NCBI GenBank assembly: GCA_020186115.1
Contig: WSYJ01000138.1
Span: 434,001-498,000 of the forward strand
Source: Histomonas meleagridis
Taxonomy: Eukaryota; Parabasalia; Tritrichomonadida; Dientamoebidae
DNA length: 64,000 nucleotides
Direction of reading: 5' to 3'
Shown: piece after piece, positions 652 through 38,867 of the stretch
How positions within the stretch are numbered: position 1 is the first letter of the stretch
Layout: each line of letters opens with the position of its first letter
Notes under the pieces: generated by a model
What the model was told of the DNA's origin: nothing
Seen by the model: only the letters and a program-made list of their open reading frames with translations
Databases searched by the model: none
Translations under genes and position numbers: made by a program

Positions 652-2204
652 ATGAATGAACCTGAGCGAGAAATAGGAGATTACAAACTTGGGCGTACTC
701 TTGGAACAGGTTCTACTGGTAAAGTTAAAATTGGTGTACATAAGCCAAGCAACACTCAAGTTGCTATAAAAATAATCAAAAAATCAGATTTTATGGATAA
801 TCCTGATTTACCGAAAAAAATATACAGGGAAATTGCAATTATGAGACTGTTAGATCATCCACATATTACAAAGTTAATTGATGTTTTTGAGTCTAAAAAT
901 CATCTTTATATTATACTTGAATATGCTCCGCATGGTGAACTTTTCGATTACCTTATACAAAGGAAGGGACTTCCTCGAGAACAAGCCATGTTAATTTTTC
1001 GTGAAATTATTTATGGTATTGAATTTCTTCACACACATGGAATTTGTCACCGAGACATCAAACTGGAGAATATTTTCCTTGACCAATTTTATCACGTTAA
1101 GATTGGCGATTTTGGTTTTGCCAGATGGCTTCCATCAAATATTGCAGAAACATATTGTGGTTCCCCACACTATGCAGCACCAGAAGTCATACGTTTTGTC
1201 CCTTATGATGGTAAGTGTGCAGATATTTGGAGTTGTGGTGTTATTTTATATGCATTATTAGCAGTATGTTTTTTTGCAATTCCTTCAATGAAGGAATTGC
1301 ACTTACTTGATCTAACCCATAGGGACGTCTTCCTTTTGATGATGCCAGTATAAGACATCTTTTTGCAAAGATCAAATTAGGTAAATATGAAATGCCTGCT
1401 TTTGAACCTGAGGTCAAAGACCTCATCAGCAAAATGCTTTGTGTTGATGTTAGCTCAAGAATTACCATTTCACAGATTAAATCTCATCCTGCATTTCTGA
1501 AATATCTTCCTAATGGTTACCAAGTACCTCGCCCCCTTCTCACGCCTAACGTCACCACTCCTATTGAAGTGAATCCAAGTGAAGTTCAATTTTTCCAATT
1601 ACTTTTATCAATAGGATATAACTCTAATGAAGAAATAATGCAAGAACTTACAGCCAATGTTCATACTAATGCCAAAACATTTTACTTAATGTATAACCGA
1701 AGTAACTTTCTTGATTCTTTGCCTTGGTGCGCCGGAAATGATGTAGCCTCGTTTAACGTCTCCCCCGAGGGTGCCCTAATGATGCCGCCCTGCACATTTT
1801 TCCTAGGAGATTCACCTGACTCACCAATTGGGAGCGTTAAAACACCACAGTCTTTTGCTCAAAGAGTTGGTTGGTATGGTAGCGCGTTACCATCAACATC
1901 ATTTTCAATTGGTATTGAACAAAAGTTTACTGATATTGAACTGCCACTAGAATTACTTATGTTATTTTTACAAAGACAACTAACTGAATGTGGTATAAAA
2001 TGGTTTCATCAAAGTGATATGGAGTTAGTAGCAAAAAGATTGGAAACAGATATGTTGCTAACTATTACGGCATCGTATGAATCAGCATCTTTGATTACAT
2101 TGTGCTTGTTTTTAGTACATGGAGATAATGATGAATTCTTGGGATTGATCAATACACTTCAAAGGGAATTATCAGAATTGTTGAATGGTTCATCTGGTTA
2201 TTAA
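652..2204 (+). CDS. CAMK/AMPK-like Ser/Thr protein kinase (two exons)
   Basis: Exon 1 is 652-1263 (204 codons) and exon 2 is 1323-2204, giving a 497-residue protein after removal of a 59-nt phase-0 intron. Splicing restores the CAMKL motif ALLA|GRLPFDD; without it the frame stops after 29 unrelated residues. Kinase motifs: glycine loop LGTGSTGKVKIG, VAIK lysine, HRDIKLEN catalytic loop, DFG in KIGDFGFARW, and activation loop AETYCGSPHYAAPE with a Thr at the position of the AMPK/LKB1-target threonine. Residues ~290-330 (NPSEVQFFQLLLSIGYNSNEE) look UBA-like. The C-terminal ~90 residues have a KA1-like pattern (GIKWFHQSDMELVAKRLE). Family: SNF1/MARK/BRSK-type kinases. An AACGG element sits upstream at 621. 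Confidence 0.88.
1264..1322 (+). other. Spliceosomal intron, 59 nt, with internal stem-loop
   Basis: The intron begins GTATGT (1264-1269) and ends TCTAACCCATAG (1311-1322), close to the described trichomonad pattern of GTATGT plus a fused branch/acceptor ACTAAC...AG. Between them, 1275-1286 and 1290-1301 form a perfect 12-bp inverted repeat around a 3-nt loop. Folding would bring the donor and branch point close together. Removal joins two codons in phase 0 and restores the kinase fold. Confidence 0.93.
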
Positions 2205-12870: not shown

Positions 12871-13437
12871 TTACATATGAATGTCATTTTCTTGGTTTAC
12901 AAAACCATATTGTTGAATGGCATTTTGTACTGATTGAAGGATTCCATCTTTAATCTCCTTGTTCATTGAAGTGTATCTACTTATTACTTGTATACCAAGC
13001 CAATTGAACAAATGGTGTATCTGCATTTCAATTTGTTGCTGTTGATTCATTTCATGTGTATGTAATGAAAATATATCATTATCATGAGAATTGAGCGGTA
13101 TAAAATTTTGCGTATTTTTTGTTTTAGCTTTGTTGGCTGATTTTTGATAGTGATAATCAGGGTGATCTATTCGAAATGAGTTATTAATTTCTTTTGCCTT
13201 TTCCTTATAAGGAGCTTTTTGTTCTTCTGACATTTCTGCCCACTTCCTGCCAATGAGCTGTGAAATCCCATTCCCAGACATTGTAGGATTTTCTGCTTTT
13301 TCAATTGTATGCCTTTCCATGTAATATAAATTATAAGCATTTGGTGGACGTTTTACACCTTTTGAGCTTTGTTGTACAGGCAATGTTTGTAATGTAGTAG
13401 AGCTGGATAAAGGGTCATCAAGGATTTCATAGCTCAT
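12871..13437 (-). CDS. HMG-box DNA-binding protein
   Basis: 188 residues. One HMG box spans ~28-100: VKRPPNAYNLYYMERHTIEK, ISQLIGRKWAEMSEEQKAPY, FRIDHPDYHYQ. The RPPNAYxLY start and the HPDYxY end are the pattern of sequence-specific SOX/MATA-type boxes rather than of the abundant HMGB architectural proteins. No second box and no acidic tail. The C-terminal ~75 residues are polar, with a helical end. Likely a nuclear transcription factor; targets are unknown. It is divergent with the nitroreductase gene. Confidence 0.87.
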   Translation of the reverse strand: MSYEILDDPLSSSTTLQTLPVQQSSKGVKRPPNAYNLYYMERHTIEKAENPTMSGNGISQLIGRKWAEMSEEQKAPYKEKAKEINNSFRIDHPDYHYQKSANKAKTKNTQNFIPLNSHDNDIFSLHTHEMNQQQQIEMQIHHLFNWLGIQVISRYTSMNKEIKDGILQSVQNAIQQYGFVNQENDIHM

Positions 13438-13918
13438 TTTGATTCGATATAGTTTGGTGCACCCGAATTTTAGCGGTTTTCGTGAAAAATGGAAGATTTT
13501 GAAGTAAACTTTTCAAATCGCCATTTTACAATGAAGTCAAAAAAGTGTCAGATAAATTACTAAAAAATCTCCAACTAAAAGCATATGTACTCATGTTTTC
13601 CTAGAACCAATACAATCTTAAAGGTTTCAAAACAATGGTGATTTAATATTTTTATAAATTTTTTTATTTAGTCAAATAATCAATTTAAATTAAAAAATTG
13701 TTCATTCAAAGGAAATACCCCTCTTACGTAAATTACTACACTCAAAAACAGAAGCATTCAATCTAAATTCAAGCTTACATAAGGATGAATTAAATTTTTT
13801 TGTTTCATCAGCGTCACTGAAAAAATGAAGTGATTTTTCTGAGGTTATCGGCGTATGTGACGGTTTATTCGCAAAATTCTGTTTTTACAGAATTGAAAAA
13901 CTCAAATTTTTTTTTGTT
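13438..13918. other. Divergent promoter region (HMG-box / nitroreductase)
   Basis: 481 nt between two divergent genes. It contains AGCGGTTTT (~13470) and GACGGTTTA (~13859), CGGT-type boxes near each start. No coding frame. Confidence 0.5.
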
Positions 13919-14473
13919 ATGGCTCTTAACGCTTTAATAACTCGTCGAACAATTCGCCAATATCAAAAAGATTATATTATACCTGAGGCTGAATTGAAAG
14001 CAATTGTTGATGCAGCACTTCTTTCACCAACTGGACTTGATGTTCAAGATGTTGATCTTCTTGTAATAACAAACCGTCAAAAAATAGAAGAGGCAACTAA
14101 GGTAACACTTGATACCATTGAAGAAGAAGGCCGCATCAAATTTATGAAAAGAATTAATAATTTTAAAGTTCAAAATCCAATTACCGGCGATGCTGGTTGC
14201 TTAATATGTTTGCTTAAGAATGAGCGTTCCACACCTGATCACACGCCAGTTCATGAAGGTATAGTTGAAATGGCTTTGATGATTGCATCAAGAGAATTTG
14301 GCTTACAATCAATGGTTCTTGGCTGCATGAAGCACGCTGACCGTAGCGCAATTGAGAAGGTACTTGGCATAGAGCCTGGGCGCCTATTATGTGGTGTTGT
14401 CATTGGGAAGCCCGTTGAAAAGCCGTTTTTCATTCCGAAGAAGTTCAAAGCGAAAGCAACATATCTCAAGTAA
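13919..14473 (+). CDS. Nitroreductase family flavoprotein
   Basis: 184 residues, normal for small nitroreductases. The N-terminal RRTIRQYQ is the FMN-phosphate-binding motif (RRSxRxY type), followed by AALLSPTGLDVQDVDLLVI and, near the C-terminus, LGIEPGRLLCGVVIGKP. It should bind FMN as a dimer and use NAD(P)H to reduce quinones or nitro compounds. The family is of bacterial type in trichomonads, where such enzymes are considered possible activators of 5-nitroimidazole drugs; that role is inferred here. The residues around the substrate pocket cannot be judged by eye. No targeting presequence is obvious, so it is probably cytosolic. Confidence 0.9.
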   Translation: MALNALITRRTIRQYQKDYIIPEAELKAIVDAALLSPTGLDVQDVDLLVITNRQKIEEATKVTLDTIEEEGRIKFMKRINNFKVQNPITGDAGCLICLLKNERSTPDHTPVHEGIVEMALMIASREFGLQSMVLGCMKHADRSAIEKVLGIEPGRLLCGVVIGKPVEKPFFIPKKFKAKATYLK

Positions 14474-15360
14474 ATACATAAATTTGAATATTTTTTAATG
14501 TTATCTTTTCTAAATTCGTTTTTAAATCGTGACTCGAAATCATTTAAGCACAACTTAAATAGATCAAATTATTTTTGCTTGATTTTTCAATTCTCACAAA
14601 AAATTGAACCTTAAAAATTTTCAAAAAACTCAAAAAATGCCTGAAACAATTCACCCAACCTATCATGAAATGAGTTTACCATTTTTTAAAATTTCATCAA
14701 ATTTTAAATAAAAGATACTTGATATGTACTGTTAGAGTTTAAATAAATGGAAAGTTAAATCATTTCATTTATCCAAAGCGCTTGTTTGTCTTAATGTGTT
14801 ATTTAACTTTATATTCCTTTCTGGTTATTCTGTTTAATCAACGCTTTTTCATTTTGTTCATTTTTTAACTTTTAATTTTGCCTTTATTTTTTATTTATAC
14901 ATTCCCTGAAATCAATTAAATTCATCCTTCGGCAATGTTGAGTAATTTTGATGTGTCAAAAATTGAAATTGCGCAATGTGTAATTTGGCCAGATTAAAAT
15001 TACCCATTTTTAATGCGTCAAAATTGAAAACTGAAATAAAGTTGTCGATTTCTGGTGATAATTCATATCGCAAATTATTGCCATTAAGTAAAATTTGCTG
15101 ACAAATGATATCTGGGTTTGTTTTGTTGATGATAAATTTTTAATAATGATTGTATATCACAAACGTTTCCCTATCGTACGGCGGTTAACGATCTAGTATC
15201 ACTCGTCAAAATAAATACATCTTACATCACATGTCGCCAAATATGAACAAAAGCTCAAACACTTCACCAAAAACGTTAAAAACAAAATTCAAACTGATAA
15301 CTTTATTGCAATGAGAAAACAACAAAATTTAAACAAAAATTGCAAAATTGTTTCGTTTAC
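14474..15360. other. Convergent intergenic region with unexpected Myb-type sites
   Basis: 887 nt between two convergent genes, where no promoter is expected. Nevertheless 15180-15190 is GGCGGTTAACG followed by ATC, a back-to-back pair of CGGT/AACGAT Myb-type cores. No open frame or recognisable RNA gene was found. The rest is AT-rich. Confidence 0.4.
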
Positions 15361-16389
15361 TTAATGCATTGAGTCGATGACTGATGTTCTCCAAACGCCT
15401 ATTTGAGATTTTAATTTTTCGATTATATCATTTGGTACTTTATCATTTGGTTTCATTTTTTCGAACACATCTAACCAATAATCGGTGATATTTTTTGCTT
15501 CTTCATTTTGTTGAAGGATATTCATTGATTGAAGTCTTCCTTTAATTTGACGAATTAATTGTAAGTATTGACCTGCAGTTACTGCATCTACCATACAATA
15601 ATCACTTAACGTCGTGAAATCTGTACCAAGTGCGACAGCTTGTTGTAAATCGACATTATTTGAATGGTTTAAACTTGTACTAATTTCTGGTGTACTATTA
15701 AATAATGCAGCGAAAGCATAACTACCTGATAATTTACAATGATTACAAAATGTTCGAATATCTTCTGTCGTTAAATTAAGTGCGTTTTGAACTGTATTAA
15801 ATTGTGACTGAAGTTCACTAAATAATTTATTATGTTCTTCTGATGTAATATAACCATTACAATATTCATCTTCTAATGATTCGATAGTACTAATTAAACT
15901 GTAAAGATTAGCATAACGCCCTTCTTGACCTTCTGGAATTCTGAATGATGGTTTTGGTGGTTGGCTACTTCCTGAGCCTGGGGCAGTGCTTTGTGAACCT
16001 GGTGCGTTCATGCCTCCTGTTGATCCTGGTGCTGCATGTGGAGCTGCACCTTGCATGGTTCCTGTCGTTGAGACTGCTCCCGAATATGGAACAGGATTGC
16101 CAGGTACTGGCTGCTGTCCAGAACTTATGAGTTGTCCTGGGCGGATAATTGATTGAACAAATGAAGGTCTTGCATTTGGTTGAAGAGAAGCACCTAAATT
16201 TCGAGGAACTGCACCACCCATAGGGTTGATATTTGTTGTTGGCATTTGTGTTGCACCTGGATAAGCCATAGGTTGTGTACCAGGATATCCGTTTGATTGC
16301 ACCATGGACTGTTGTCCCATTCCGTAACCCATCTGACCATAACCATAGCCTTGTTGGGCATATCCTTGAGCTCCCATGTATGGATACAT
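15361..16389 (-). CDS. VPS28: VPS28-like ESCRT-I subunit, long form with Gly/Pro/Gln-rich N-terminus
   Basis: 342 residues. Residues 1-~145 are low-complexity (G, Y, Q, P, A; MYPYMGAQGYAQQGYGYGQ), likely disordered. Residues ~150-342 are a full VPS28 fold: EGQEGRYANLYSLISTIESL, then EHNKLFSELQSQFN (ESCRT-I core), and a C-terminal four-helix domain (SDYCMVDAVTAGQYLQLI; NITDYWLDVFEKM). ESCRT-I sorts ubiquitinated cargo into multivesicular bodies. The VPS28 part is identical over 555 bp to the gene at 16828 on the other strand, while the N-termini are unrelated. Canonical VPS28 is ~220 residues, so the N-terminal extension is extra. Confidence 0.9.
   Translation of the reverse strand: MYPYMGAQGYAQQGYGYGQMGYGMGQQSMVQSNGYPGTQPMAYPGATQMPTTNINPMGGAVPRNLGASLQPNARPSFVQSIIRPGQLISSGQQPVPGNPVPYSGAVSTTGTMQGAAPHAAPGSTGGMNAPGSQSTAPGSGSSQPPKPSFRIPEGQEGRYANLYSLISTIESLEDEYCNGYITSEEHNKLFSELQSQFNTVQNALNLTTEDIRTFCNHCKLSGSYAFAALFNSTPEISTSLNHSNNVDLQQAVALGTDFTTLSDYCMVDAVTAGQYLQLIRQIKGRLQSMNILQQNEEAKNITDYWLDVFEKMKPNDKVPNDIIEKLKSQIGVWRTSVIDSMH
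15386..15940 (-). repeat. Inverted-repeat arm B (555 bp, VPS28 domain)
   Basis: Reverse complement of 17181-17735; no mismatch was seen while reading both. It ends abruptly inside both coding regions: N-terminal sequences and the last seven codons differ. Arms are 1.24 kb apart. Confidence 0.9.
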
Positions 16390-16827
16390 CTTGAAGCTTG
16401 CTCTAATAAAACTGTCGGAAGAAACGGTTCTGAAAAAGTCGATTTTAATTCAAAAACTGTTTGTGTAAATTACACAAAAGTGGCTTCTATCATTATTTCT
16501 TCAAAGAAATAATTAGCCGACCATATAAGCTGTGAAAAACAAATTTCACTTTGACGTTATAAAACTGCCATAATTTTGGACGAAATTATAAAAAATGAAG
16601 AAATAATTAATTAAAATTTAAACATTACAAAAAGATTTAAATATATCCTAATTTTTTAAAATAAAAATATCATTTTATAATCCTTTAATATTTACATATG
16701 AAAATGAAAATAAAAGTTTTGATTTAGAAAAAATTAAACACCTTTTATATGATAGCAATTCAAATCTCAAAGTTTTAGTTTAAGTTTTTTTTTCACATAT
16801 AATTTTTTCATTAGTGCATTTCTTTCG
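16390..16827. other. Divergent promoter region between the two VPS28 genes
   Basis: 438 nt, very AT-rich, between two divergent start codons. No shared sequence between the two half-promoters was seen, so the duplication did not include the 5' ends. No further gene. Confidence 0.45.
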
Positions 16828-17760
16828 ATGTCTTATCCATTTATGCGATATCAAAAATCCATAGAACAACCCAACAATCCAAAAAACACAAAGAAGAAGA
16901 ACAAAAAACACAACAAAATCCAATATCTACAACCAACGCCAAATTTAAGAACAACAATTACAATGAGACCACCGAATGATATATATCCAAACTCCATAAT
17001 GACATATTATAACACTACAAGTACCACATACAGCGAAATGAATTTTTCTTCAGAAGAAACAAACAACAATTACTTCAACATAAACAAAACAAATCAAACA
17101 ATGATTTCGTCAGCAATAGAAAGAGAAACGACATTAAAAGATGAAACGCAATTATTAATTGTTGAAGAAACGAAACATCAAATTCCAGAAGGTCAAGAAG
17201 GGCGTTATGCTAATCTTTACAGTTTAATTAGTACTATCGAATCATTAGAAGATGAATATTGTAATGGTTATATTACATCAGAAGAACATAATAAATTATT
17301 TAGTGAACTTCAGTCACAATTTAATACAGTTCAAAACGCACTTAATTTAACGACAGAAGATATTCGAACATTTTGTAATCATTGTAAATTATCAGGTAGT
17401 TATGCTTTCGCTGCATTATTTAATAGTACACCAGAAATTAGTACAAGTTTAAACCATTCAAATAATGTCGATTTACAACAAGCTGTCGCACTTGGTACAG
17501 ATTTCACGACGTTAAGTGATTATTGTATGGTAGATGCAGTAACTGCAGGTCAATACTTACAATTAATTCGTCAAATTAAAGGAAGACTTCAATCAATGAA
17601 TATCCTTCAACAAAATGAAGAAGCAAAAAATATCACCGATTATTGGTTAGATGTGTTCGAAAAAATGAAACCAAATGATAAAGTACCAAATGATATAATC
17701 GAAAAATTAAAATCTCAAATAGGCGTTTGGAGAACTTCGGCAATTGAAACAATGCACTAA
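16828..17760 (+). CDS. VPS28: VPS28-like ESCRT-I subunit, second copy with Asn/Thr/Lys-rich N-terminus
   Basis: 310 residues. Residues 1-~118 are basic then N/T/S-rich low complexity (KNTKKKNKKHNKIQYLQ, MNFSSEETNNNYFNINK). Residues ~119-310 are a VPS28 domain identical to that of the 15361-16389 gene apart from the last residues (RTSAIETMH against RTSVIDSMH). The pairing of one identical domain with two unrelated N-termini points to domain capture or gene conversion. Both copies keep the C-terminal helical domain that links ESCRT-I to ESCRT-II/III. The different N-termini could give different localisation or regulation. Confidence 0.88.
   Translation: MSYPFMRYQKSIEQPNNPKNTKKKNKKHNKIQYLQPTPNLRTTITMRPPNDIYPNSIMTYYNTTSTTYSEMNFSSEETNNNYFNINKTNQTMISSAIERETTLKDETQLLIVEETKHQIPEGQEGRYANLYSLISTIESLEDEYCNGYITSEEHNKLFSELQSQFNTVQNALNLTTEDIRTFCNHCKLSGSYAFAALFNSTPEISTSLNHSNNVDLQQAVALGTDFTTLSDYCMVDAVTAGQYLQLIRQIKGRLQSMNILQQNEEAKNITDYWLDVFEKMKPNDKVPNDIIEKLKSQIGVWRTSAIETMH
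17181..17735 (+). repeat. Inverted-repeat arm B' (555 bp, VPS28 domain)
   Basis: Partner of 15386-15940 in inverted orientation. Identity runs from AATTCCAGAAGG to GGAGAAC and stops sharply at both ends. Confidence 0.9.
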
Positions 17761-27777: not shown

Positions 27778-30700
27778 TCACCACCATGGGTACCACCCAA
27801 TGAACATCATACATAAATTCTTCGGATCCGTAGCCTCTTTAATTAAATAATCGACCTGATCCACGAATGGCGTCACCTTATCACCGCCCAATTCTTTACC
27901 CTTTAACTTATCGTCAATTCTTTTAATAATATTAATTGCCGATTTACTTTCATTTTCACCCTCAGTAATCCATTGCAATAACGGATCATAAATAAACACT
28001 TCTAATAATCCAAGAATTTGCTCACCATTTTCCCTTAACAAACTCATCACATTTTGACAACAATACCTAAAAGTGCCATCAATTTTTGACACTTCCAATG
28101 CGTTCTGTAACATTCTTGTTAATCGAAACGGTACTTTTTCGGGGAACTTATCTCTATGCATAGCCACTTCGAAACAATCACCGAAGTCGATATGAACCAA
28201 TTTCGAATTTCTTTTCTTTATCATTATATTACACAAATGTCTATCACCTAAACCTAATATATAGCCAACCATTGACGTCATAGCCAATGATGTTGTGTAC
28301 AACGTTCTATGTTCAATCCAATGGTTTGAATCATCAGCCATAGTTAACATTAAATTCTTTAAATCATTACCAGGCTGAGCCTTCATTCCTTGTTGGAAAC
28401 CTATTAGTTTATCATCACAATAAGGTAAAGATTCAAACTTAGGGCAAAACTTCATCGTAGTTTGGTATTCTATCTCTAAAGGTATTTCGTGCTTTTTTCT
28501 GTTCATTTTCACTAAGTCGTATAAAGTGTTACAGTTTGGTACCCACCCTATTAAACCGACTTTTTGAGTGATCGGCATCACTTTGTACGTTATAATTGTC
28601 AGTTTTTCCTTTAACGGTTTTTTACTTTGTAGGATAATTGAGTTCACTAAAGAGAATAATTGCATAACACGTTCATCCAAACGTGTGTCTTCGTTTGCCT
28701 TTAATAAGAATGTGAATTTAGTGCCATCAGAACCAATTAATGCCATTTTTCGTGGCCTTTGTTTACTCCGCATTACAACCATTTCTGACTCGACATTAGT
28801 TAATAATATCAATGGCTGATTAATTTCATATGTACCAGGAACAAATAGATCAGTGTTTTGTAAGTTTAATAGTAATGGCGATGCATCACTTAGTTTTATT
28901 GTAGTTAAATCAGCTATCAAAGGTTTTAGTTGATGAAATACTTCGATGTATATTGTCCATGCTTGTAATAAACAATTATCATTTTGTGTTTCGTTATATT
29001 TAATTAGCCATTGTTTAGCTATTTCTAATTTATAGTTAAATTGTTTTATGAACATTAACTCATAAAACGTCTTTGGTTCTTCTGATAAAAACTTATGATA
29101 TGGTAATAAGATATCAACCATCTCTTGTTTGTTCTTACGCATTACATAAGCACGGGAAGCTTCTTCTATTTGAGAGAACCACATTTCCCACCATGAAGTA
29201 GCCACACGTATTAATTCATTTGACAATATCAGAATTTGACTAACTATGTTCGGAAATTCTTGTTGAATTTTATTGAATATAATTTGGGCAACTTTTTGGC
29301 GATTTGATGATTCACTTTTTAATGGAACCATTAAAGAATGTAATACCAATTGAGGCTGATGTTTACCAATTACTAATAATAAGTTTTCGATTAATTCTTT
29401 AAGTTTTAAGTCATTAGAATTAGTCCTTGCAATAATTTGTGGTAATACTTCTATCCAAACTATTAATGGTAATTCGGATAAATAACTTTGGAACTTTTGA
29501 TATAATTCTTCGAAACCATTTTGGAAAAGAATCGATAAAATTCGTAATGTAAATGATAAAGAATGTGATGGCCTTAATAAAATACCTTTAAGTAATCCAT
29601 CTAATGAATCAATTAAATAAGATTTATCATGAGTCTTTTCATATAATGTATAATTGACTTGTGACCAAAATGAACATTGTTCATCAGTATAATTAAAGTT
29701 ATTATTATCGAAGAATTTGATGAGGTTTTTATGTGATTCTTCGTCATTCTTCTTTTCGAAGTTCCATTTACTTAATAAATAATATGATTCGACTTTATCA
29801 AATGGTAATTCTTTAATCGCTTCATCAACTTTCCCTTCGCAATAAAGAAATCGACTATAAACAAATTTGAAGTCTGTATCAAGTTCTTTTAATGAACTCT
29901 TTAAATAGTCAAATGAATTAGATAATAATTCATATCTTTTATATTTAATTGCACAATTTAGAAACTTTAACCATTGAGGCTTAAGTGACTTAGGCTTTAA
30001 TACTAATGATCGAATACATAAAGCATGATGCATAATGTTAGGATTATCTGGTAATTGATCATATCTAATTTCCCAAACCTTTTTAATCAATGATAAACTC
30101 TTTAATATATTATCTCTATTTTCATTAAATATATTTTTAGATTCCAATTTCAATTTCTTATATTTAATAACTTCATTAATTTCTGATGCAAATGATATCT
30201 TTGTAAATTCATTATATACTTGTTCATAGTCTTCTGAGATTACTGGGAAGATTCGATCAATAAATTTCAATTGCATTTGTTTCAATAAATCTTTTGCAGT
30301 ATTAAAATCATTTTTCATTACACATGATAATGATCTTAAGAATAATCCATCAACAGAAGTGTTATTAGATAATTTCGATACTGTTTCAAGGAATTGCTTT
30401 TTTTCAAACATTCGCCATTCTGCATTAGCTAAATATAAAGGCCAATTACCATTCGAAGAAGCTTCTTTTAATGCTTTATATTGTGACAAATTCTTTAAAC
30501 AATTTAATTTGCCTTTATAAAGTTGCATATCATTTGGATTATTTTGTAATTCATTATGATATAATTCTAAGGCATCTTCCCATAGACCTAATCGCTCAGC
30601 TAAGATAGCTTGTTTTGTAGAAATACCTCTTAATGCTGCTACTCTTAAGATACCTTTAGCAGCTAAAGGTAAACCTAATTGTTGATTTAAGACAATTAGT

Positions 30701-33700
30701 TTTTCTGTTTGTGAATTATCTAAATTCTCATATAATGCTTCCGACGCTCGTAATGATTGTGCAATTCTTTCTGCTTTTTGTGCAGTTAATGCAATCGCCT
30801 TTAAACTAATAGGTAAATCACCACCTAAAACTTCGATGATTTCAATTGCGGCTAAAAAATGTCGAATTACATTTCTCGGTATAGTATTATATCTAAATAA
30901 TTTAATGAATAAATTACTGATTCCTTCATTTCGTACATTTTTATATTGGAAATAATATAATGCTAATGTTATAGGATATAATGAATCTCTAATACCTGCA
31001 TGTTTTTCAATGACACTTTCACATGCAGATATAGCTCTCGAAGATGATGAACTTACCATTAAACCGAAGAAGTCTTCACACCATTTATTCCATTGTGATT
31101 CATCATAATCCATTTGTGGCGTAATAATATCAAGTAATTGAAATTCACTTGAAACTACTGTCGATTTTGTTGGTATACGTTTCGTTGATATTTTTAATGG
31201 TTCCGGAGTTAATTTTTGTAATATTTTCTTAGGAGTAGGTTCACCTATTTTTAATGAGATTATATAAGCAATTAAATCAGCATTTGAATATAAGTTTAAG
31301 ACAGTTGATATTTGTGGTATATAAAGTAAAAATTGTTGGCCTAAATGTACACCAATAACTAAAATGATTTCAATGACTTTATCATGTAAAGAATGATTAA
31401 TTTGGACAATTTGTATCATAGTCTTTAATAATTGTGAAGAGAATTTTAATGTACCTCCATTAATTAATATATCTTTGAAGGTCTCCAATATATCTTCAAT
31501 CGGTTCATTTGCATGATATTTAATCCATTCTAATAATGGTGGATATATTATATGATCAATATTCTTTACATATTGACCAAATGATAAAATTGCTAATAAA
31601 ATCCCTGAAACAGATTTTGCATTTTCAGTTTCGATATCTTGGAATAATATTGCAGCAATTCTTGGTAAATATGGTATACAAGATTCTGGTAAATATAACA
31701 TTAACCAATTTAATATACGAATTAATAATGATTGATCTAATTTCTTCCAATTATTACATATTAATTCAACTACATGTGGTACTAAAGGTATAAAACTATC
31801 GCCTAAAACTGTAATTAATGTCGACATGTTCTTAATTAATACTGATACTGATGATGTGCCTCCCATAGATATTAATTTCGAGATTTTTATCATTATTTGT
31901 GATTCTAATTCATCCGAAATCATTAATCGATGTGCTCTTAATATATTTAATAATGCTTCAATAGCTATTGAGTGTATTGTTGATTGTGATTCATCAGATA
32001 ATATATCTAATAATGTTAATGATGCTACACCGACTGAAGCCATTGTTAAACCTTCAATCGCATTTTTGAAGGTATAATTAAATAAATATGTATTAGGAGT
32101 AATAATTTTATTATCTTTTTGATTCTTTTCTTTAATTTGTAATTTGGATATGATTGCAGGTGATATAGCACCGATATTACTTAATAACTTTAACATTTTT
32201 ATTGACGATTTATCTGTCATATGTATATTCGAATATTCTAAAAGTTTTACAATAATATCTGAATATTGATTATATATTAAATATTTCAAATCAGTATTAT
32301 TTAATGCGGATTGTATTAAATTAGTGACTGCTTCAAATCGTTTAGGTGTTGAATAATTCAAATTATTACGTATTAAATTTACTAATAATTCAATATCTGT
32401 ACTTTGTGGAGATAACTTTAAAAGTTGTGATAATAATTGTATTGAAGTTGTTGATAATATTTGTGTCGATTTTAATAAATATTGTATTAAAAATGATGAA
32501 AAAACATATAATAAATGTTTCGCATAATTAGAATATTTCGGATTATTAGAAAACGCCGCATCAGAAACAATTAAAAAACATTTAATATGTTCCTTAAATA
32601 TAACTGATGATTGTTCTAAGTCACGAATTTTCTCAATTAAAAATCCTTTAAGTAATGATTGTGCTTCTGAAATATATGATAAATGTGTAATAAATTTTAA
32701 TGCTTCTAATCGAATACTTTGAGTTGAATCATGTAATAATAACTTTAATGGATTTAATACTCTTTTATCTGATGTTTCCTTATTAAGATTAAACATTAAA
32801 TATTCTTGTTGTTCAACATTCGATTCAGTAGAAATTATACTTAGAATTCTTAATATTATATCAATGGATGGCGCCTTTCTTTGATAATCTAATACAAATT
32901 GTGATGAAATCCTTCGTATCTTTAAGCTTAAACTTGACATATGCATTGAGTATAACATTATCATTTCTAATGTTATCATTTTGTTTGGGATTTTCATTTT
33001 CCTTAAACTCTTAAATGCTTCTAATATCGATTTAGGATCTGATTCATCATTTAGTAATATTTCATTTATGGAATTTATTACTTTTTCACATAAAGTTTCT
33101 GTATATTTTGGAAAGATTTGACTAAATTCATATAATCCTTTCACTATAAAACTCGTTAATGGATATCCAAAAACAATATTAATTTCATCATTAAAATGTT
33201 CAGGTGATATAGTTAATAATGAACAAAAACAATATGATGATTGTTCACTATCAATTGGTTCAAGTAATTTTTTGCATTTCTCTAAATTAGATTTTTCATT
33301 TTTACTAAATTCGCCTTTTCGTGAAAAAATATAATTTGCAAAACCAATTAATGCTTCGTTTCGATTCGCCGCTTTTTTCCGAATAAGAACTGAATATGCT
33401 TTAATGATTTTTAGATGGATTTCTTCGGTGAACAAATTCGGAGAACAACGATAACAAATGGGTAAAAACGAATATATTGGTAAACGCATTTGAATTTCAC
33501 GTGAATCTAGTAAAGAAATTTGTGGGTTTGAAAAATTGAAATTATTGGTATTTTGAATATCAAATTTAATGATGGTTTGAATGGCTATGCATGTACCTTC
33601 TATGTATTCGGGTACTGTACATGAGTTTGATAATATTTGACAAAGTTGTTTGATCGGAAAATCTTTCCGTATTTTTAAGACAAGCTTTAAAGCTCGCTTG

Positions 33701-34293
33701 GCAACAGAATAAACTTTAGGAGATGAAAACTGAAACCCAATGGCAAAGGCCTGGATCAGTTTAGCATCAGATATTGTGATCTTATTTGAAAAATTTCGAT
33801 ATAAAATTGGAATAACATTAAAAATACAAATGGCTTTGGACTCATCGTTAGATTGTATGGTGGATATTAATGATTGATACGGTAAAAGAATTTGATCTAT
33901 TGACTTGGGATTAGTTTTATCAAGCCAACGTAAAACACGTTCGAGTGTAATCCAAAAAATATGATTTGTATCACAGTGTAAACCTCTAAACTGGAAAGAA
34001 ATTCTATTCGCCTTTAAAATTTTATCTCCGATATCAATATTAATTATTGTGTCTAAAACTATAATAACAGTTGTTTGATTTTCCACATTTTTAAGTTCAC
34101 CAAGTAAATCTGTATATAAATCTTGTACAAGATTTCGTTCTTTTCTGATTAAATATTGATTCCGTACAAATAAATGGAAAAGATGTATTAATTTATCAAA
34201 CTCATGAGTACCATATAAATTAAGCTTTTGTGTGAGAGTTGCAAAAAATTTGCGTGTTTTAACTATAAAGCTTCCTGTTATTTCGTCGCTCAT
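27778..34293 (-). CDS. TOR: TOR (target of rapamycin) PI3K-related kinase
   Basis: 2171 residues from MSDEITGSF (ATG at 34293; the 15-codon upstream extension has no ATG). Layout: HEAT repeats 1-~1050, FAT ~1080-1640, FRB ~1680-1790 (WWEMWFSQIEEASRAY), PI3K-type kinase with GLGDRHLCNIM and HIDFGDCFE, and a C-terminal FATC ending CMMFIGWYPWW, the TOR-specific form. TOR controls growth and autophagy in response to nutrients. Length is slightly below the 2400-2550 of fungal and animal TOR. FRB keeps the Ser and Trp of the rapamycin site but differs at other contact positions (see findings). No RAPTOR or LST8 gene is in the window. Confidence 0.96.
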   Translation of the reverse strand: MSDEITGSFIVKTRKFFATLTQKLNLYGTHEFDKLIHLFHLFVRNQYLIRKERNLVQDLYTDLLGELKNVENQTTVIIVLDTIINIDIGDKILKANRISFQFRGLHCDTNHIFWITLERVLRWLDKTNPKSIDQILLPYQSLISTIQSNDESKAICIFNVIPILYRNFSNKITISDAKLIQAFAIGFQFSSPKVYSVAKRALKLVLKIRKDFPIKQLCQILSNSCTVPEYIEGTCIAIQTIIKFDIQNTNNFNFSNPQISLLDSREIQMRLPIYSFLPICYRCSPNLFTEEIHLKIIKAYSVLIRKKAANRNEALIGFANYIFSRKGEFSKNEKSNLEKCKKLLEPIDSEQSSYCFCSLLTISPEHFNDEINIVFGYPLTSFIVKGLYEFSQIFPKYTETLCEKVINSINEILLNDESDPKSILEAFKSLRKMKIPNKMITLEMIMLYSMHMSSLSLKIRRISSQFVLDYQRKAPSIDIILRILSIISTESNVEQQEYLMFNLNKETSDKRVLNPLKLLLHDSTQSIRLEALKFITHLSYISEAQSLLKGFLIEKIRDLEQSSVIFKEHIKCFLIVSDAAFSNNPKYSNYAKHLLYVFSSFLIQYLLKSTQILSTTSIQLLSQLLKLSPQSTDIELLVNLIRNNLNYSTPKRFEAVTNLIQSALNNTDLKYLIYNQYSDIIVKLLEYSNIHMTDKSSIKMLKLLSNIGAISPAIISKLQIKEKNQKDNKIITPNTYLFNYTFKNAIEGLTMASVGVASLTLLDILSDESQSTIHSIAIEALLNILRAHRLMISDELESQIMIKISKLISMGGTSSVSVLIKNMSTLITVLGDSFIPLVPHVVELICNNWKKLDQSLLIRILNWLMLYLPESCIPYLPRIAAILFQDIETENAKSVSGILLAILSFGQYVKNIDHIIYPPLLEWIKYHANEPIEDILETFKDILINGGTLKFSSQLLKTMIQIVQINHSLHDKVIEIILVIGVHLGQQFLLYIPQISTVLNLYSNADLIAYIISLKIGEPTPKKILQKLTPEPLKISTKRIPTKSTVVSSEFQLLDIITPQMDYDESQWNKWCEDFFGLMVSSSSSRAISACESVIEKHAGIRDSLYPITLALYYFQYKNVRNEGISNLFIKLFRYNTIPRNVIRHFLAAIEIIEVLGGDLPISLKAIALTAQKAERIAQSLRASEALYENLDNSQTEKLIVLNQQLGLPLAAKGILRVAALRGISTKQAILAERLGLWEDALELYHNELQNNPNDMQLYKGKLNCLKNLSQYKALKEASSNGNWPLYLANAEWRMFEKKQFLETVSKLSNNTSVDGLFLRSLSCVMKNDFNTAKDLLKQMQLKFIDRIFPVISEDYEQVYNEFTKISFASEINEVIKYKKLKLESKNIFNENRDNILKSLSLIKKVWEIRYDQLPDNPNIMHHALCIRSLVLKPKSLKPQWLKFLNCAIKYKRYELLSNSFDYLKSSLKELDTDFKFVYSRFLYCEGKVDEAIKELPFDKVESYYLLSKWNFEKKNDEESHKNLIKFFDNNNFNYTDEQCSFWSQVNYTLYEKTHDKSYLIDSLDGLLKGILLRPSHSLSFTLRILSILFQNGFEELYQKFQSYLSELPLIVWIEVLPQIIARTNSNDLKLKELIENLLLVIGKHQPQLVLHSLMVPLKSESSNRQKVAQIIFNKIQQEFPNIVSQILILSNELIRVATSWWEMWFSQIEEASRAYVMRKNKQEMVDILLPYHKFLSEEPKTFYELMFIKQFNYKLEIAKQWLIKYNETQNDNCLLQAWTIYIEVFHQLKPLIADLTTIKLSDASPLLLNLQNTDLFVPGTYEINQPLILLTNVESEMVVMRSKQRPRKMALIGSDGTKFTFLLKANEDTRLDERVMQLFSLVNSIILQSKKPLKEKLTIITYKVMPITQKVGLIGWVPNCNTLYDLVKMNRKKHEIPLEIEYQTTMKFCPKFESLPYCDDKLIGFQQGMKAQPGNDLKNLMLTMADDSNHWIEHRTLYTTSLAMTSMVGYILGLGDRHLCNIMIKKRNSKLVHIDFGDCFEVAMHRDKFPEKVPFRLTRMLQNALEVSKIDGTFRYCCQNVMSLLRENGEQILGLLEVFIYDPLLQWITEGENESKSAINIIKRIDDKLKGKELGGDKVTPFVDQVDYLIKEATDPKNLCMMFIGWYPWW

Positions 34294-34443
34294 TTGTTTT
34301 CCGCTTGTTTCTAATTCAATTTTTGTAGAAATTGTCAAATTAATTCATTGAATAAATTGTCACTTTTATAATTATTTGGTAACATTTTTTTGAGTAAAAT
34401 TATTTTTTTGGTATTAATTCTATAAAAATAAAAATGTCATATT

Positions 34444-35793: not shown

Positions 35794-36360
35794 CAAAATT
35801 ATACTCATCATGAGCCAATGAAATAAATTGCTCAAAATAGTTATGTTTATAGAGAGTACATATTTAGACGGATTTAATCATATGTAAAAATTTACATTTC
35901 CCAAGTATTTTTTAAACATAAGCAATTAAAAGGAGTTTTAAACATAAGCTTAATTAAGCTTTTAAAAATATACCGAAAGTACTAAATCAAAAACATCTTT
36001 ATTTTTCTAAAAAGTGACAATAGTAAGTATCAGAATTTATCACTTTTTGAGAAGTGTTGTCACTTTCGATGACAGAGAGATCTACTTTTTGAGTGCTGTG
36101 ACTATTCTTTCATTGTAGTAAATGTGAAAAAAGTAAAATTACTTCTGCAAAATAATTTAATAATTTAATATGCTTAAAGTTTAGGAATATATAGGAAGTT
36201 AAAAGACAATTTTTTCTTGTTACAACGCAAAAGGAAATTAGGATTCATACATTTTATCGTTAAATATGTTTGAATGGTATAAAAAATGTTCGTTTCCGAT
36301 TGAATACTTTATCGGTTTTTGTCATTGCGGTTTTATATTCAATTGTCCAACGACAAAAAA
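35794..36360. other. Intergenic, promoter of ankyrin gene
   Basis: 567 nt. It contains a run with repeated TTTTTGAGAAGTG / TTTTTGAGTGCTG (~36045-36100) and TCGGTTTTTGTCATTG at 36312-36327, about 40 nt before the ATG. No gene. Confidence 0.4.
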
Positions 36361-38867
36361 ATGGGAAATGATTGTAGCCAAATCCTAGCGAATAATGATG
36401 AGTGTTACTCAAAGTTGCAATCAATTGAAGAAGTTATTTTTGATTTAAGTCAAGAGAACATCATTTCTTCCATTGAATTTGTAATGACTTTATTTGAAGA
36501 TGAACAATATCCATATTCATTTAATCTTATTATTTGTCAAATAATTTATTCATCGTTTGTATCCCAGATGAATGATATTGATCTTTATATAAAATTTATC
36601 GAGATGATTGAAGCAAAACAGTTCGATAAAAGTAAATATGAAATTAGTGAAATTTTTATTCAATTTCTTCTTCATTCCAAATCACAAGAATCAAATTATA
36701 TACTTGGAAAATTGATAGAAAAAAAGTTAGCAACACCTAGAACTGTAAAGAGGGAAAAAACATTATATTTTTCACATTATAAATCAAAAGAAGAAATCAA
36801 TGGAATTAATTATTTCCCTCCATTTCTTCAACAATTTATAGAAAACATTGATAAACTTTCAGAGAACAATTGGGAAATTCATAAACAATTAATTAAAGAA
36901 GGACATAATCCAAATGAAATTGCAAAAATAATTCGAAATGATGAAATAGAAAAACTTCAAGAAATAACATCACAAAATAATTTTGATATTAATAAAAAGA
37001 TTAAACCATCACTTTATGAAAGATATTCATTTATTAATAAAAGCGATGTAACCCTTGTAGATTATGCAGCATTTTTTGGATCAGTTAAATGTTTTAAATT
37101 TTTATTGTTAATTGGTTCTAATATAAATAAAACAGGTAAATATGCAATTGCAGGCGGAAACTTAGAGATAATTCATTTATGTGAACAATATCATTCATCA
37201 TTCGAAAATGCATATGAAATAGCAATTGAATTTCATCGAAATGATATTTTTCATTATCTTTATGATAATGAAATTATTAGTATCGATAGCATTCCAAATT
37301 TAGTTGTTAAATGTTTGAAATATTCTAATTACAAAATTCTTTCATTTCTTGAAAATGAAAGAATGATAATCGATAACTCAATTATAATTGAAACAGCAAA
37401 AATTGGAAATATTTTTCTATTCCAGAAATTTATCAAAGATAATCAAATACCGAAAAATATTCTGATTTTTTCCATTGAATCAGGAAATATTGAGTTAATA
37501 AAATGTATACTTGAACAAAACGGAATTGATTTAGATGCTAGAGATGATTTTTTATTCTATTTGAATTTTATTTTCTTGTTTTTATGTTTTAAAGTTTGTT
37601 ATGGATTTTATTCATTTTGTTTAGAAATGCTCTTATGTTAGCATCTATTAATGGTTATTACGAAATTATAAAATTATTATTCCAACGAAATGATATAAAT
37701 ATTTATGCAAAAGATATTAAATCAATTTATTTAATGTTTGTTTGAATTGCTTTTTGACATTTATTTAATTCATTTAATTCAGCATTTATTTATTCGGTAC
37801 AAAACAATCATATTAAAATAATGGAATTATTTATGGAAATTAATGATATAGATGTTAATGAAAAAGGTGTTTAATCATTTATTATAATGTTCTATTTAAA
37901 TTTTTGAAGTTTTAATAATATATTAGGTATTTGTTTAATTTGTTTAGAACACCGCTTATTTTTGCATCTGAAAAAGGACATATAGAAATTGTAAAGATAC
38001 TTCTTGCGCAAAATAAAATTGATATTAATGTGAAAGATATTTAAATGATTTATTAGATGTTTGTTTTAATTACATGATGTTTTATTATAGTTTTTGGATT
38101 TTATTTAAATTATTTTGGACAGCGCTTATGGAGGCATGTTTTTATTGTAATAATGAAATTGTTAAATTATTAATTGAAAGAAAAGAAATTGATATCAATG
38201 CAAAAGATATTAAATTGAATTATATAATGTTCATTCAATAATTTTAGTATTTTAATGTTTTTTTTCGAATTTCATAAAATCATTTCAAACAGCATTTAAT
38301 TATGCATGTTTTAAAAATAATTATGAAATTGTTAAAATATTTATAGAAAGAAAAGATGTAGAAATTAATACCAAAAATATACTTTATTTATGTTTAAAGT
38401 TAGTTTTATTTATTTTAGTTTTAAAATATCTTTTTGAGATCATTTAATGTAATTTGAAACAGCTTTAATGAATTTATGTGAAAATGGTTTTATTGAAATT
38501 ATTAAACTACTTCTAAAACGTGATGATTTAGATATTAATGCTAAAGATAATTATTTGATTTATTTGAAGTTTATTTTTTTTATAAAATATATCAAAAATA
38601 TTTTTGGAATTTATTAAAATTACTTAGAACAGCGCTTATGGTTGCTTCTTCTAAAGGTAAATTTGAAGCTGTTAAATCCCTTCTTGAACATAGTAAAATT
38701 GACATAAATGCTAAAGATATTATTTGAGCTTAATTAAAGTTTGATAATATAATTGGATATTTCATTTTTTCATTTGGAATTTTTTCATTTTATTTAAGAC
38801 AGCACTTATGATTGCATCTGATAAAGGTTACACTAATATTGTTGAAATTTTGACTAAAAAAACTTGA
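36361..38867 (+). CDS. DUF3447/ankyrin protein whose repeats are split by spacers
   Basis: The first frame (36361-37641) starts MGNDCSQILANNDECY, preceded by no other ATG. It has the family N-terminal domain (YSFNLIICQIIYSSF, WEIHKQLIKEGHN, VDYAAFFGSVKCFKFLL) and ankyrin repeats up to GIDLDARDD, then hits a stop in an AT-rich spacer. Downstream, eight more ankyrin modules (starting 37626, 37779, 37949, 38119, 38289, 38459, 38629, 38799) are each open for 31 codons (e.g. TALMVASSKGKFEAVKSLLE). The last ends in a stop at 38865-38867 after IVEILTKKT. Modules differ widely from each other, so they are old. If spacers are removed, one long ankyrin protein results; otherwise the gene is broken at 37641. 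Spliced structure is not proven. Confidence 0.6.
37549..38867 (+). repeat. Ankyrin module array with 170-nt period
   Basis: Units are a 93-nt ankyrin module followed by an AT-rich spacer. Spacer lengths in order are 77, 60, 77, 77, 77, 77, 77, 77. Module starts from 37779 onward are spaced exactly 170 nt. Spacers share an outer 3' pattern (TTTGGAATTTATTTAAATTATTT-like, in degenerate form) right before the Thr-Ala-Leu codons. Every spacer is closed by stops in at least the module's own frame. Confidence 0.85.

What the first reader, a model, noticed from the sequence alone, without database searches (positions are those of the whole stretch)
36361..38867. Ankyrin gene with one regular non-coding spacer per repeat and an exact 170-nt period
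Seen directly: eight ankyrin modules after the first frame, each open for 31 codons (the last ends in a stop), separated by spacers of 77, 60, 77, 77, 77, 77, 77 and 77 nt (the first lies before the first of these modules). Starts from 37779 to 38799 are spaced exactly 170 nt. 170 is 2 mod 3, so adjacent modules lie in different frames, yet all are intact and diverged from each other. This fits a gene in which spacers are removed from the RNA (about 71 nt removed would leave a canonical 33-residue repeat), which would mean at least eight introns in a lineage thought to be nearly intron-free. Alternatives: an ankyrin-derived satellite with a nucleosome-sized period, or a recently inactivated gene. 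The known intron at 1264 has motifs these spacers lack.
Basis: partly seen in the sequence, partly recalled or inferred. Interest (0 to 1): 0.88.

Follow-up and report, generated by a model that had tools for sequence, protein, structure and literature searches.

The report
Ankyrin codons separated by 17-base inserts
In the poultry parasite Histomonas meleagridis, many ankyrin repeats are joined by short loops whose codons are split apart by 17-base inserts that carry no ordinary splice signals, so if the proteins are made the cell must remove or skip these inserts, by a route that is not known.

Summary
The genome is Histomonas meleagridis. The 77-nt 'spacers' are not single non-coding blocks: each parses as four 17-nt inserts, each followed by one codon, D-[17]-x-[17]-x-[17]-G-[17]-x-T. 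The four codons form the ankyrin loop (xxGx) joining two repeats. In 150 unique 80-nt D-to-T gaps the third codon is Gly in 129 at this phase and in 0 or 1 at 17 other phases. Of 1,028,790 placements of four codons, the 17/20-nt placement scores best against a profile made only from insert-free loops. 261 of 276 gaps of 9-100 nt have length 3n+17k. Some other ankyrin genes carry one to three 17-nt inserts at the same loop. The inserts read RTTT...TTT and lack AG ends. Loop codons 1, 2 and 4 are hypervariable together with helix residues of the repeat, which suggests that one joined protein is made and selected. A pattern for the end of such gaps has 4,366 matches genome-wide. Most likely the inserts leave the RNA before translation; the machinery is unknown. 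I had no RNA data. Seven literature searches found no description.

The parts
36361..37545 (+). First open part of the ankyrin gene (DUF3447 plus ankyrin) up to the last Asp codon before the first loop; the raw frame 36304-37641 runs on into the first gap and stops
   Evidence: ORF; Pfam DUF3447 and Ank; 99 scored places in the genome; coordinates
37546..37625 (+). Loop gap 1: four 17-nt inserts (37546-37562, 37566-37582, 37586-37602, 37606-37622) alternating with codons GAA TAT GGA AGA (E Y G R)
   Evidence: phase statistics
37626..37715 (+). Ankyrin module 1 (NALM...AKD)
   Evidence: module HMM
37716..37778 (+). Loop gap 2 (63 nt): read as codon ATT, then three 17-nt inserts (37719-37735, 37739-37755, 37759-37775) alternating with GTT GAC AAT (I V D N); which of slots 1-3 is empty is assumed, not shown
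   Evidence: 63-nt class
37779..37868 (+). Ankyrin module 2
37869..37948 (+). Loop gap 3: four 17-nt inserts with codons N E G R
37949..38038 (+). Ankyrin module 3 (TPLI...VKD)
38039..38118 (+). Loop gap 4: four 17-nt inserts with codons D D G W
38119..38208 (+). Ankyrin module 4
38209..38288 (+). Loop gap 5: four 17-nt inserts with codons N S R Q
38289..38378 (+). Ankyrin module 5
38379..38458 (+). Loop gap 6: four 17-nt inserts with codons K stop E E; the misfit of the array (TAG at 38416-38418), the one stop among the 600 loop codons
38459..38548 (+). Ankyrin module 6
38549..38628 (+). Loop gap 7: four 17-nt inserts with codons E N G R
38629..38718 (+). Ankyrin module 7
38719..38798 (+). 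Loop gap 8: four 17-nt inserts with codons K D G K
38799..38867 (+). Last ankyrin module, ending in a stop codon (TALMIASDKGYTNIVEILTKKT*)

Best explanation
The 36361-38867 gene is one member of a large ankyrin family in Histomonas meleagridis whose loop codons are each preceded by a 17-nt insert (5'-RTTT...TTT-3'). Shown by sequence: the 17+3 pattern, the loop identity of the codons, the many copies, the lack of AG ends. Inferred: the inserts leave the RNA before translation, one by one, as ultrashort intron-like elements with single-codon exons, so a continuous 34-residue ankyrin repeat is translated and selected, with its variable codons on the binding face. The machinery is unknown; an altered spliceosome and a separate cut-and-join or guide system are both open.
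For: Gly at loop codon 3 in 129 of 150 unique gaps (44 of 53 mutually <75% identical), 0 or 1 at 17 other phases. Best of 1,028,790 placements on the 53 diverged gaps, with a profile from 47 insert-free loops. 261 of 276 gaps of 9-100 nt fit 3n+17k, n 3-5, k 0-5, which covers 18 of 92 lengths (counted from the list). In 13 gaps that I picked from other or mixed loci, 8 of the 9 with two or more inserts fit separate 17-mers better than one block. In 90 close pairs, loop codons 1, 2, 4 differ at 0.39, 0.34, 0.49 per site, 17-mers at 0.07; the most variable residues are module positions 4, 5, 8, 9, 11 and loops 1, 2, 4 (159 pairs). Kinase (7 of 133 with inner stops) and LRR (one listed place) genes lack such interruptions among their best matches.
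Against: No RNA or peptide evidence. No AG end; 3-nt exons are hard to square with known splicing. One pattern search for insert-free array junctions gave only 4 places, each with 3 mismatches. A search for a joined protein gave 5 hits of 95 candidates, the query among them, none named Histomonas. The window gene has a TAG loop codon. Few stops in loop codons is not special to phase 0: phases -17 and -4 have 0 and 1. 15 of 276 gaps are off the lattice; slot 1 can apparently be 18-19 nt. Gap by gap, 17x4 is the best split in only 14 of 53 (median rank 4 of 231), though best on the mean. L064-type loops hold three or five codons and mostly lack the Gly. L042 does not fit. In 12 of 47 loci another skip length scored better.
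Confidence: 0.66

Rival explanations
1. One ordinary-sized intron (68-71 nt) is removed per repeat; the 17-nt regularity is a relic of how the spacer grew.
For: 68 nt removed also restores frame; spacer length is nearly constant (77 nt in 153 of 209 intervals).
Against: A single cut cannot keep all four loop codons: mean loop score -3.9 bits at the best of 13 cut points against 6.8 for the separate parse, worse in 51 of 53; 17- and 34-nt inserts occur alone in other genes; no AG ends.
Confidence: 0.08
2. The RNA keeps the 17-mers and the ribosome hops over each one (translational bypassing), several times per repeat.
For: Fixed length, no splice signals; bypassing of short gaps is known from T4 gene 60 and yeast mitochondria (recalled; gene 60 also in the abstract start of PMC11194080 in the listing).
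Against: Known bypassing uses matching take-off and landing codons (recalled); across the third insert codons 2 and 3 cannot match in at least 120 of 150 gaps (Gly in 129 at codon 3, in 9 at codon 2). 31 hops would be needed in this gene alone.
Confidence: 0.1
3. The arrays are silent DNA: only the first frame (about 430 aa) is made, and the tail is a store of modules and codons for recombination, or is decaying.
For: First frames stop in or soon after the first gap in most of 30 loci (by eye); no transcript seen; insert-free copies not found.
Against: Loop Gly and codon-position bias persist in mutually diverged arrays; module and loop share one variability pattern; the array here ends in a module closed by a stop codon; recombination of whole modules would carry the inserts along.
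Confidence: 0.12
4. The 17-mers are cut from DNA, as internal eliminated sequences are in ciliates, so the expressed copy is a rearranged gene.
For: Precise, fixed-length, AT-rich elements inside genes.
Against: No close insert-free version of the array junction was found in the assembly with one pattern; no germline-soma split is known in parabasalids (recalled).
Confidence: 0.04

Closest known systems
Spliceosomal introns of parabasalids (Trichomonas vaginalis types A and B)
   Same: Intervening sequences inside genes of the same phylum; type B are T-rich and uniformly short
   Different: All 63 T. vaginalis introns have GT/AG and a branch site fused to the 3' motif, shortest 23 nt (PMC12316389 section 8). 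Here 17 nt, R-TTT ... TTT, AG end in 2 of 212, up to four in a row with 3-nt exons. The ordinary introns of this genome match GTATGT ... CTAACNCATAG (11 exact matches)
Ultrashort introns of Stentor and chlorarachniophyte nucleomorphs
   Same: Comparable length (15-21 nt, recalled; the Stentor paper PMC9505925 seen only in the listing)
   Different: Those keep GT-AG ends and normal exons (recalled)
Programmed translational bypassing (T4 gene 60; mitochondrial byps)
   Same: Gap in the reading frame absent from the protein
   Different: Known cases use matching take-off and landing codons and longer gaps (recalled); here fixed 17 nt, mostly non-matching codons, many per gene
Ankyrin repeat repertoires and DARPins
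   Same: The hypervariable loop codons are at positions randomised in designed ankyrins (2, 3 and 5, recalled)
   Different: Natural family, with each variable loop codon flanked by a 17-nt insert

Membership tests
Spliceosomal intron | GT (or known variant) start and AG end | tested here: not met
   Of 212 inserts from 53 diverged gaps: start AT 107, GT 57, AA 16, TT 13; end TT 150, AT 27, TC 16, AG 2
Spliceosomal intron | Branch/3' motif like that of the genome's own introns (CTAACNCATAG) | tested here: not met
   Motif found 11 times with GTATGT genome-wide. Judged from the insert logo, where C is at most 0.14 at any position over all slots; single inserts were not searched for the motif
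Spliceosomal intron | Removed from RNA | not testable with these tools
   No transcript data held
Parabasalid type B intron | 23-25 nt with GT/AG | tested here: not met
   17 nt, AG in 2 of 212; definition from PMC12316389 section 8
Self-splicing or tRNA-type (bulge-helix-bulge) intron | Conserved secondary structure that defines the ends | tested here: inconclusive
   RNAalifold of 53 diverged 80-nt gaps gives no pairs, 0.0 kcal/mol; the script then crashed before its control, and flanks were not included
Translational bypass | Matching take-off and landing codons | tested here: not met
   Third codon Gly in 129 of 150, second codon Gly in 9 of 150, so no match across the third insert in at least 120 of 150; other inserts not counted
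Ankyrin repeat protein | 33/34-residue T-P/A-L ... D-xxGx repeat | tested here: met
   Pfam Ank and DUF3447 in the first frame; 492 module hits over both strands of the loci; loops match 47 insert-free loops
Pseudogene or satellite | No codon-level constraint | tested here: not met
   Gly at one phase only; in 141 pairs under 70% identity, module codon positions 1/2/3 differ 0.45/0.26/0.46. The low stop count (1 of 600) is weak evidence, since phases -17 and -4 have 0 and 1

The most novel reading that the evidence does not exclude
Histomonas has a previously undescribed class of RNA-level insert: 17 nt, RTTT...TTT ends, no AG, present in thousands of copies and alternating with single-codon exons. 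It sits in the binding loops of a large ankyrin repertoire, where the inserts may also help to keep the loop codons exchangeable and variable.
Probability: 0.55. Interest if true: 0.97.

Novelty: categorically new. Interest (0 to 1): 0.93.

Why it matters
I know of no intron, bypass or editing system with fixed 17-nt inserts that alternate with single codons, and seven literature searches showed none. If confirmed, it needs either a spliceosome working without AG and with 3-nt exons, or another removal machine. It would also mean that a large ankyrin family, with its variability on the binding face, is missed by gene annotation: the genome paper reports at most one intron per gene, and its main text does not contain the word ankyrin. 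The question is directly testable with existing RNA-seq.

Tried and rejected
Single-intron model with cuts anywhere: rejected. Frameshifting: overlapping open frames look inviting in L002, but in the window there is no frame overlap at 37745/37758, 37874/37919 or 38241/38256. Conserved RNA fold: none seen (the shuffle control crashed and was not repeated). Insert-free copies: 4 places at 3 mismatches with one pattern. Joined protein in the protein database: none found, though few proteins there are named Histomonas. Inserts in other families: LRR (202 matches, not all listed; one listed place with an inner stop) and kinases (7 of 133 with inner stops, four of the seven overlapping an ordinary intron) argue against a genome-wide feature, but these controls see only the best matches. 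Literature: seven searches gave no description of such inserts; most subscription papers are not held. PMC8529796, PMC11978803 and PMC10063853 were seen as found passages, PMC12316389 as passages and section 8; all others only as listings.

Counts and rows dropped: 307 gaps became 294 after removal of identical copies; 18 longer than 100 nt were left out of the lattice count, and the lattice was recognised from these same data. Overlapping loci (L036/L041, L045/L055, L039/L054; L001 is the window itself) were collapsed but not; one search scored one best chain per locus, with a module profile built from the same loci. One search kept only gaps with nearly full modules on both sides. The 13 gaps were chosen by me from printed sequence; they come from seven loci, of which L022 is one of the array loci and L034 is mixed. 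Copies within an array are related, so counts are not independent; the 53-gap set is the guard.

Full report
WHERE IT IS. The window is G000:C74:434001-498000 of a 43.28 Mb assembly of 121 contigs. Two proteins from a contig of 3,384,422 bases, the length of C120 here, are named Histomonas meleagridis, and the genome paper lists the same largest contig, though 187 contigs (PMC8529796, passages). So this is the agent of histomonosis in poultry. That paper gives 573 introns, at most one per gene; its main text does not contain the word ankyrin.

THE OBSERVATION. The 170-nt period is real. The first frame carries DUF3447 and ankyrin matches. Searching the genome with it gave 99 scored places from 7,948 first-look candidates, most about 50-55% identical, with open frames mostly of 400-500 aa; many of the listed places have one to four stops inside the matched stretch, which reaches into the first gap. 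After turning 16 minus-strand loci, 28 of the 30 best loci have 170 or 153 nt among their four strongest lags (L004 and L027 do not). In those 30 loci, 209 intervals between modules were 170 nt in 147 and 153 in 22.

THE KEY STEP. One mixed gene (L034) has insert-free junctions (LDENGMTPL) and junctions with inserts at the same place. Measured from the Asp codon to the Thr codon, gaps are 12 nt when nothing is inserted, and otherwise mostly 29, 46, 63 or 80: steps of 17. The 80-nt gap reads as four 17-mers, each followed by one codon. These codons are the ankyrin loop xxGx. In the window they are EYGR, IVDN, NEGR, DDGW, NSRQ, K-stop-EE, ENGR and KDGK. The second is the 63-nt gap with three inserts; I assumed that its first slot is empty, which cannot tell from an empty second or third slot.

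TESTS. (a) Phase: of 150 unique 80-nt gaps, codon 3 is Gly in 129 at phase 0 and in 0 or 1 at 17 other phases; among 53 gaps that are mutually under 75% identical it is 44. Stops in the four codons are 1 of 600 at phase 0 and 278 at phase -1, but also 0 at phase -17 and 1 at phase -4, so the stop count alone is weak. (b) Placement: with a profile built only from 47 insert-free loops of this genome, the offsets 17, 37, 57, 77 rank first of 1,028,790 ways to place four codons in the 53 gaps; the separate parse beats the best single 68-nt cut in 51 of 53. At 17, 734 of 844 skips fall before the four loop codons, 61 before Thr and 26 before Asp; no other column has more than 4. Of 47 loci with a gain over 10 bits, 17 is best in 35. 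(d) Lattice: of 276 gaps between 9 and 100 nt, 261 have length 3n+17k with n of 3 to 5 and k of 0 to 5, a set of 18 of 92 lengths; leaving out 12 and 80 nt, 60 of 75 (counted). The pattern was recognised from the same data. (e) Thirteen gaps that I picked from seven loci: in 8 of the 9 with two or more inserts the separate parse (best of the slot choices) beats the single block (best of 13 cuts), giving loops such as NEGL, KDGE, GNGE, GEGW; L042 does not fit. (f) On the mean, 17x4 is the best of 231 length splits, but gap by gap it is first in only 14 of 53. Seven gaps one or two bases longer are best explained in five cases (one a near-tie) by a first insert of 18 or 19 nt with the other three at 17.

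THE INSERTS. The consensus over 212 inserts is RTTT at the 5' end and TTT at the 3' end, mostly A or T between; 107 start AT, 57 GT; 150 end TT; 2 end AG. Ordinary introns of this genome are different: GTATGT ... CTAACNCATAG matched exactly 11 times against 0 for the reversed pattern. A U6-like RNA is present just under the curated score (43.7 against 44 bits), so a normal spliceosome is likely. An alignment of 53 gaps folds into no consensus structure; the control did not run. A pattern for the end of the gap has 4,366 matches with up to two mismatches, and 0 for the reversed pattern; only the first places are listed and they were not checked one by one. If each marks a gap with three or four inserts, there are some 13,000-17,000 inserts; that is extrapolation.

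SELECTION. In pairs of units from one locus with at least 85% identity (90 pairs), 17-mers differ at 0.07 per site, module positions at 0.08-0.13, loop codons 1, 2 and 4 at 0.39, 0.34 and 0.49, and the Gly codon at 0.09. Chosen by 17-mer identity alone (159 pairs), the residues that change most are module positions 4, 5, 8, 9, 11 and loop positions 1, 2, 4. From memory, these are fingertip and inner-helix residues that bind targets in ankyrin proteins, and loops 1, 2, 4 are positions randomised in DARPins. A shared pattern across module and loop is expected if they end up in one protein. This is the main reason to think the inserts are removed or skipped; it is inference, not observation.

OTHER SPECIES. 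Proteins of the same family come from unnamed ENA sequences. One (P0006) has its best scored match in this genome at 60%, so it probably comes from another species. P0001 runs into a gap-like tail with Gly at residue 20 after its Lys-Asp, where the third loop codon would fall (read by eye). Tritrichomonas foetus has a DUF3447-ankyrin protein with uninterrupted repeats (P0022).

AGAINST. No RNA or peptide was seen. Insert-free array junctions were not found with one pattern (4 places at 3 mismatches). A search for a joined protein found none. The window gene has a TAG as one loop codon (38416-38418), which may mean a damaged copy or a local shift in the parse. L064-type loops have three or five codons and mostly lack the Gly. 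The related copies are not independent.

MECHANISM. Most likely the 17-mers are removed from RNA before translation, one by one. Shown: pattern, position, length, ends, constraint. Inferred: removal at RNA level. Unknown: the machine. Silent storage, ribosome bypassing, a single intron and DNA elimination remain as rivals.

Noticed in passing
window 1264-1322 and 10 other places: All 11 exact matches to the ordinary intron pattern GTATGT...CTAACNCATAG appear, by eye, to hold a hairpin in the middle; in the window GCAATTCCTTC...GAAGGAATTGC.
   Followed up: partly
G000:C78:376002-376739: A protein kinase domain lies in an open frame reported as 22,955 aa.
   Followed up: no
L064 (G000:C40:1819000-1824000): Array whose loop gaps are built largely of 17-mers like ATATGTTTTAATAATTT with differing triplets between them; loops of three or five codons.
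   Followed up: partly
window 27778-34344 minus strand: Uninterrupted 2,188-aa TOR-like kinase frame (FAT, FRB, kinase, FATC).
   Followed up: no
array loop codon 3: The loop Gly is GGA in 121 of 129 cases, a bias that might be part of a signal at the insert boundary.
   Followed up: no
window 36010-36100: Repeated TCACTTT-like motifs upstream of the ankyrin gene (by eye).
   Followed up: no
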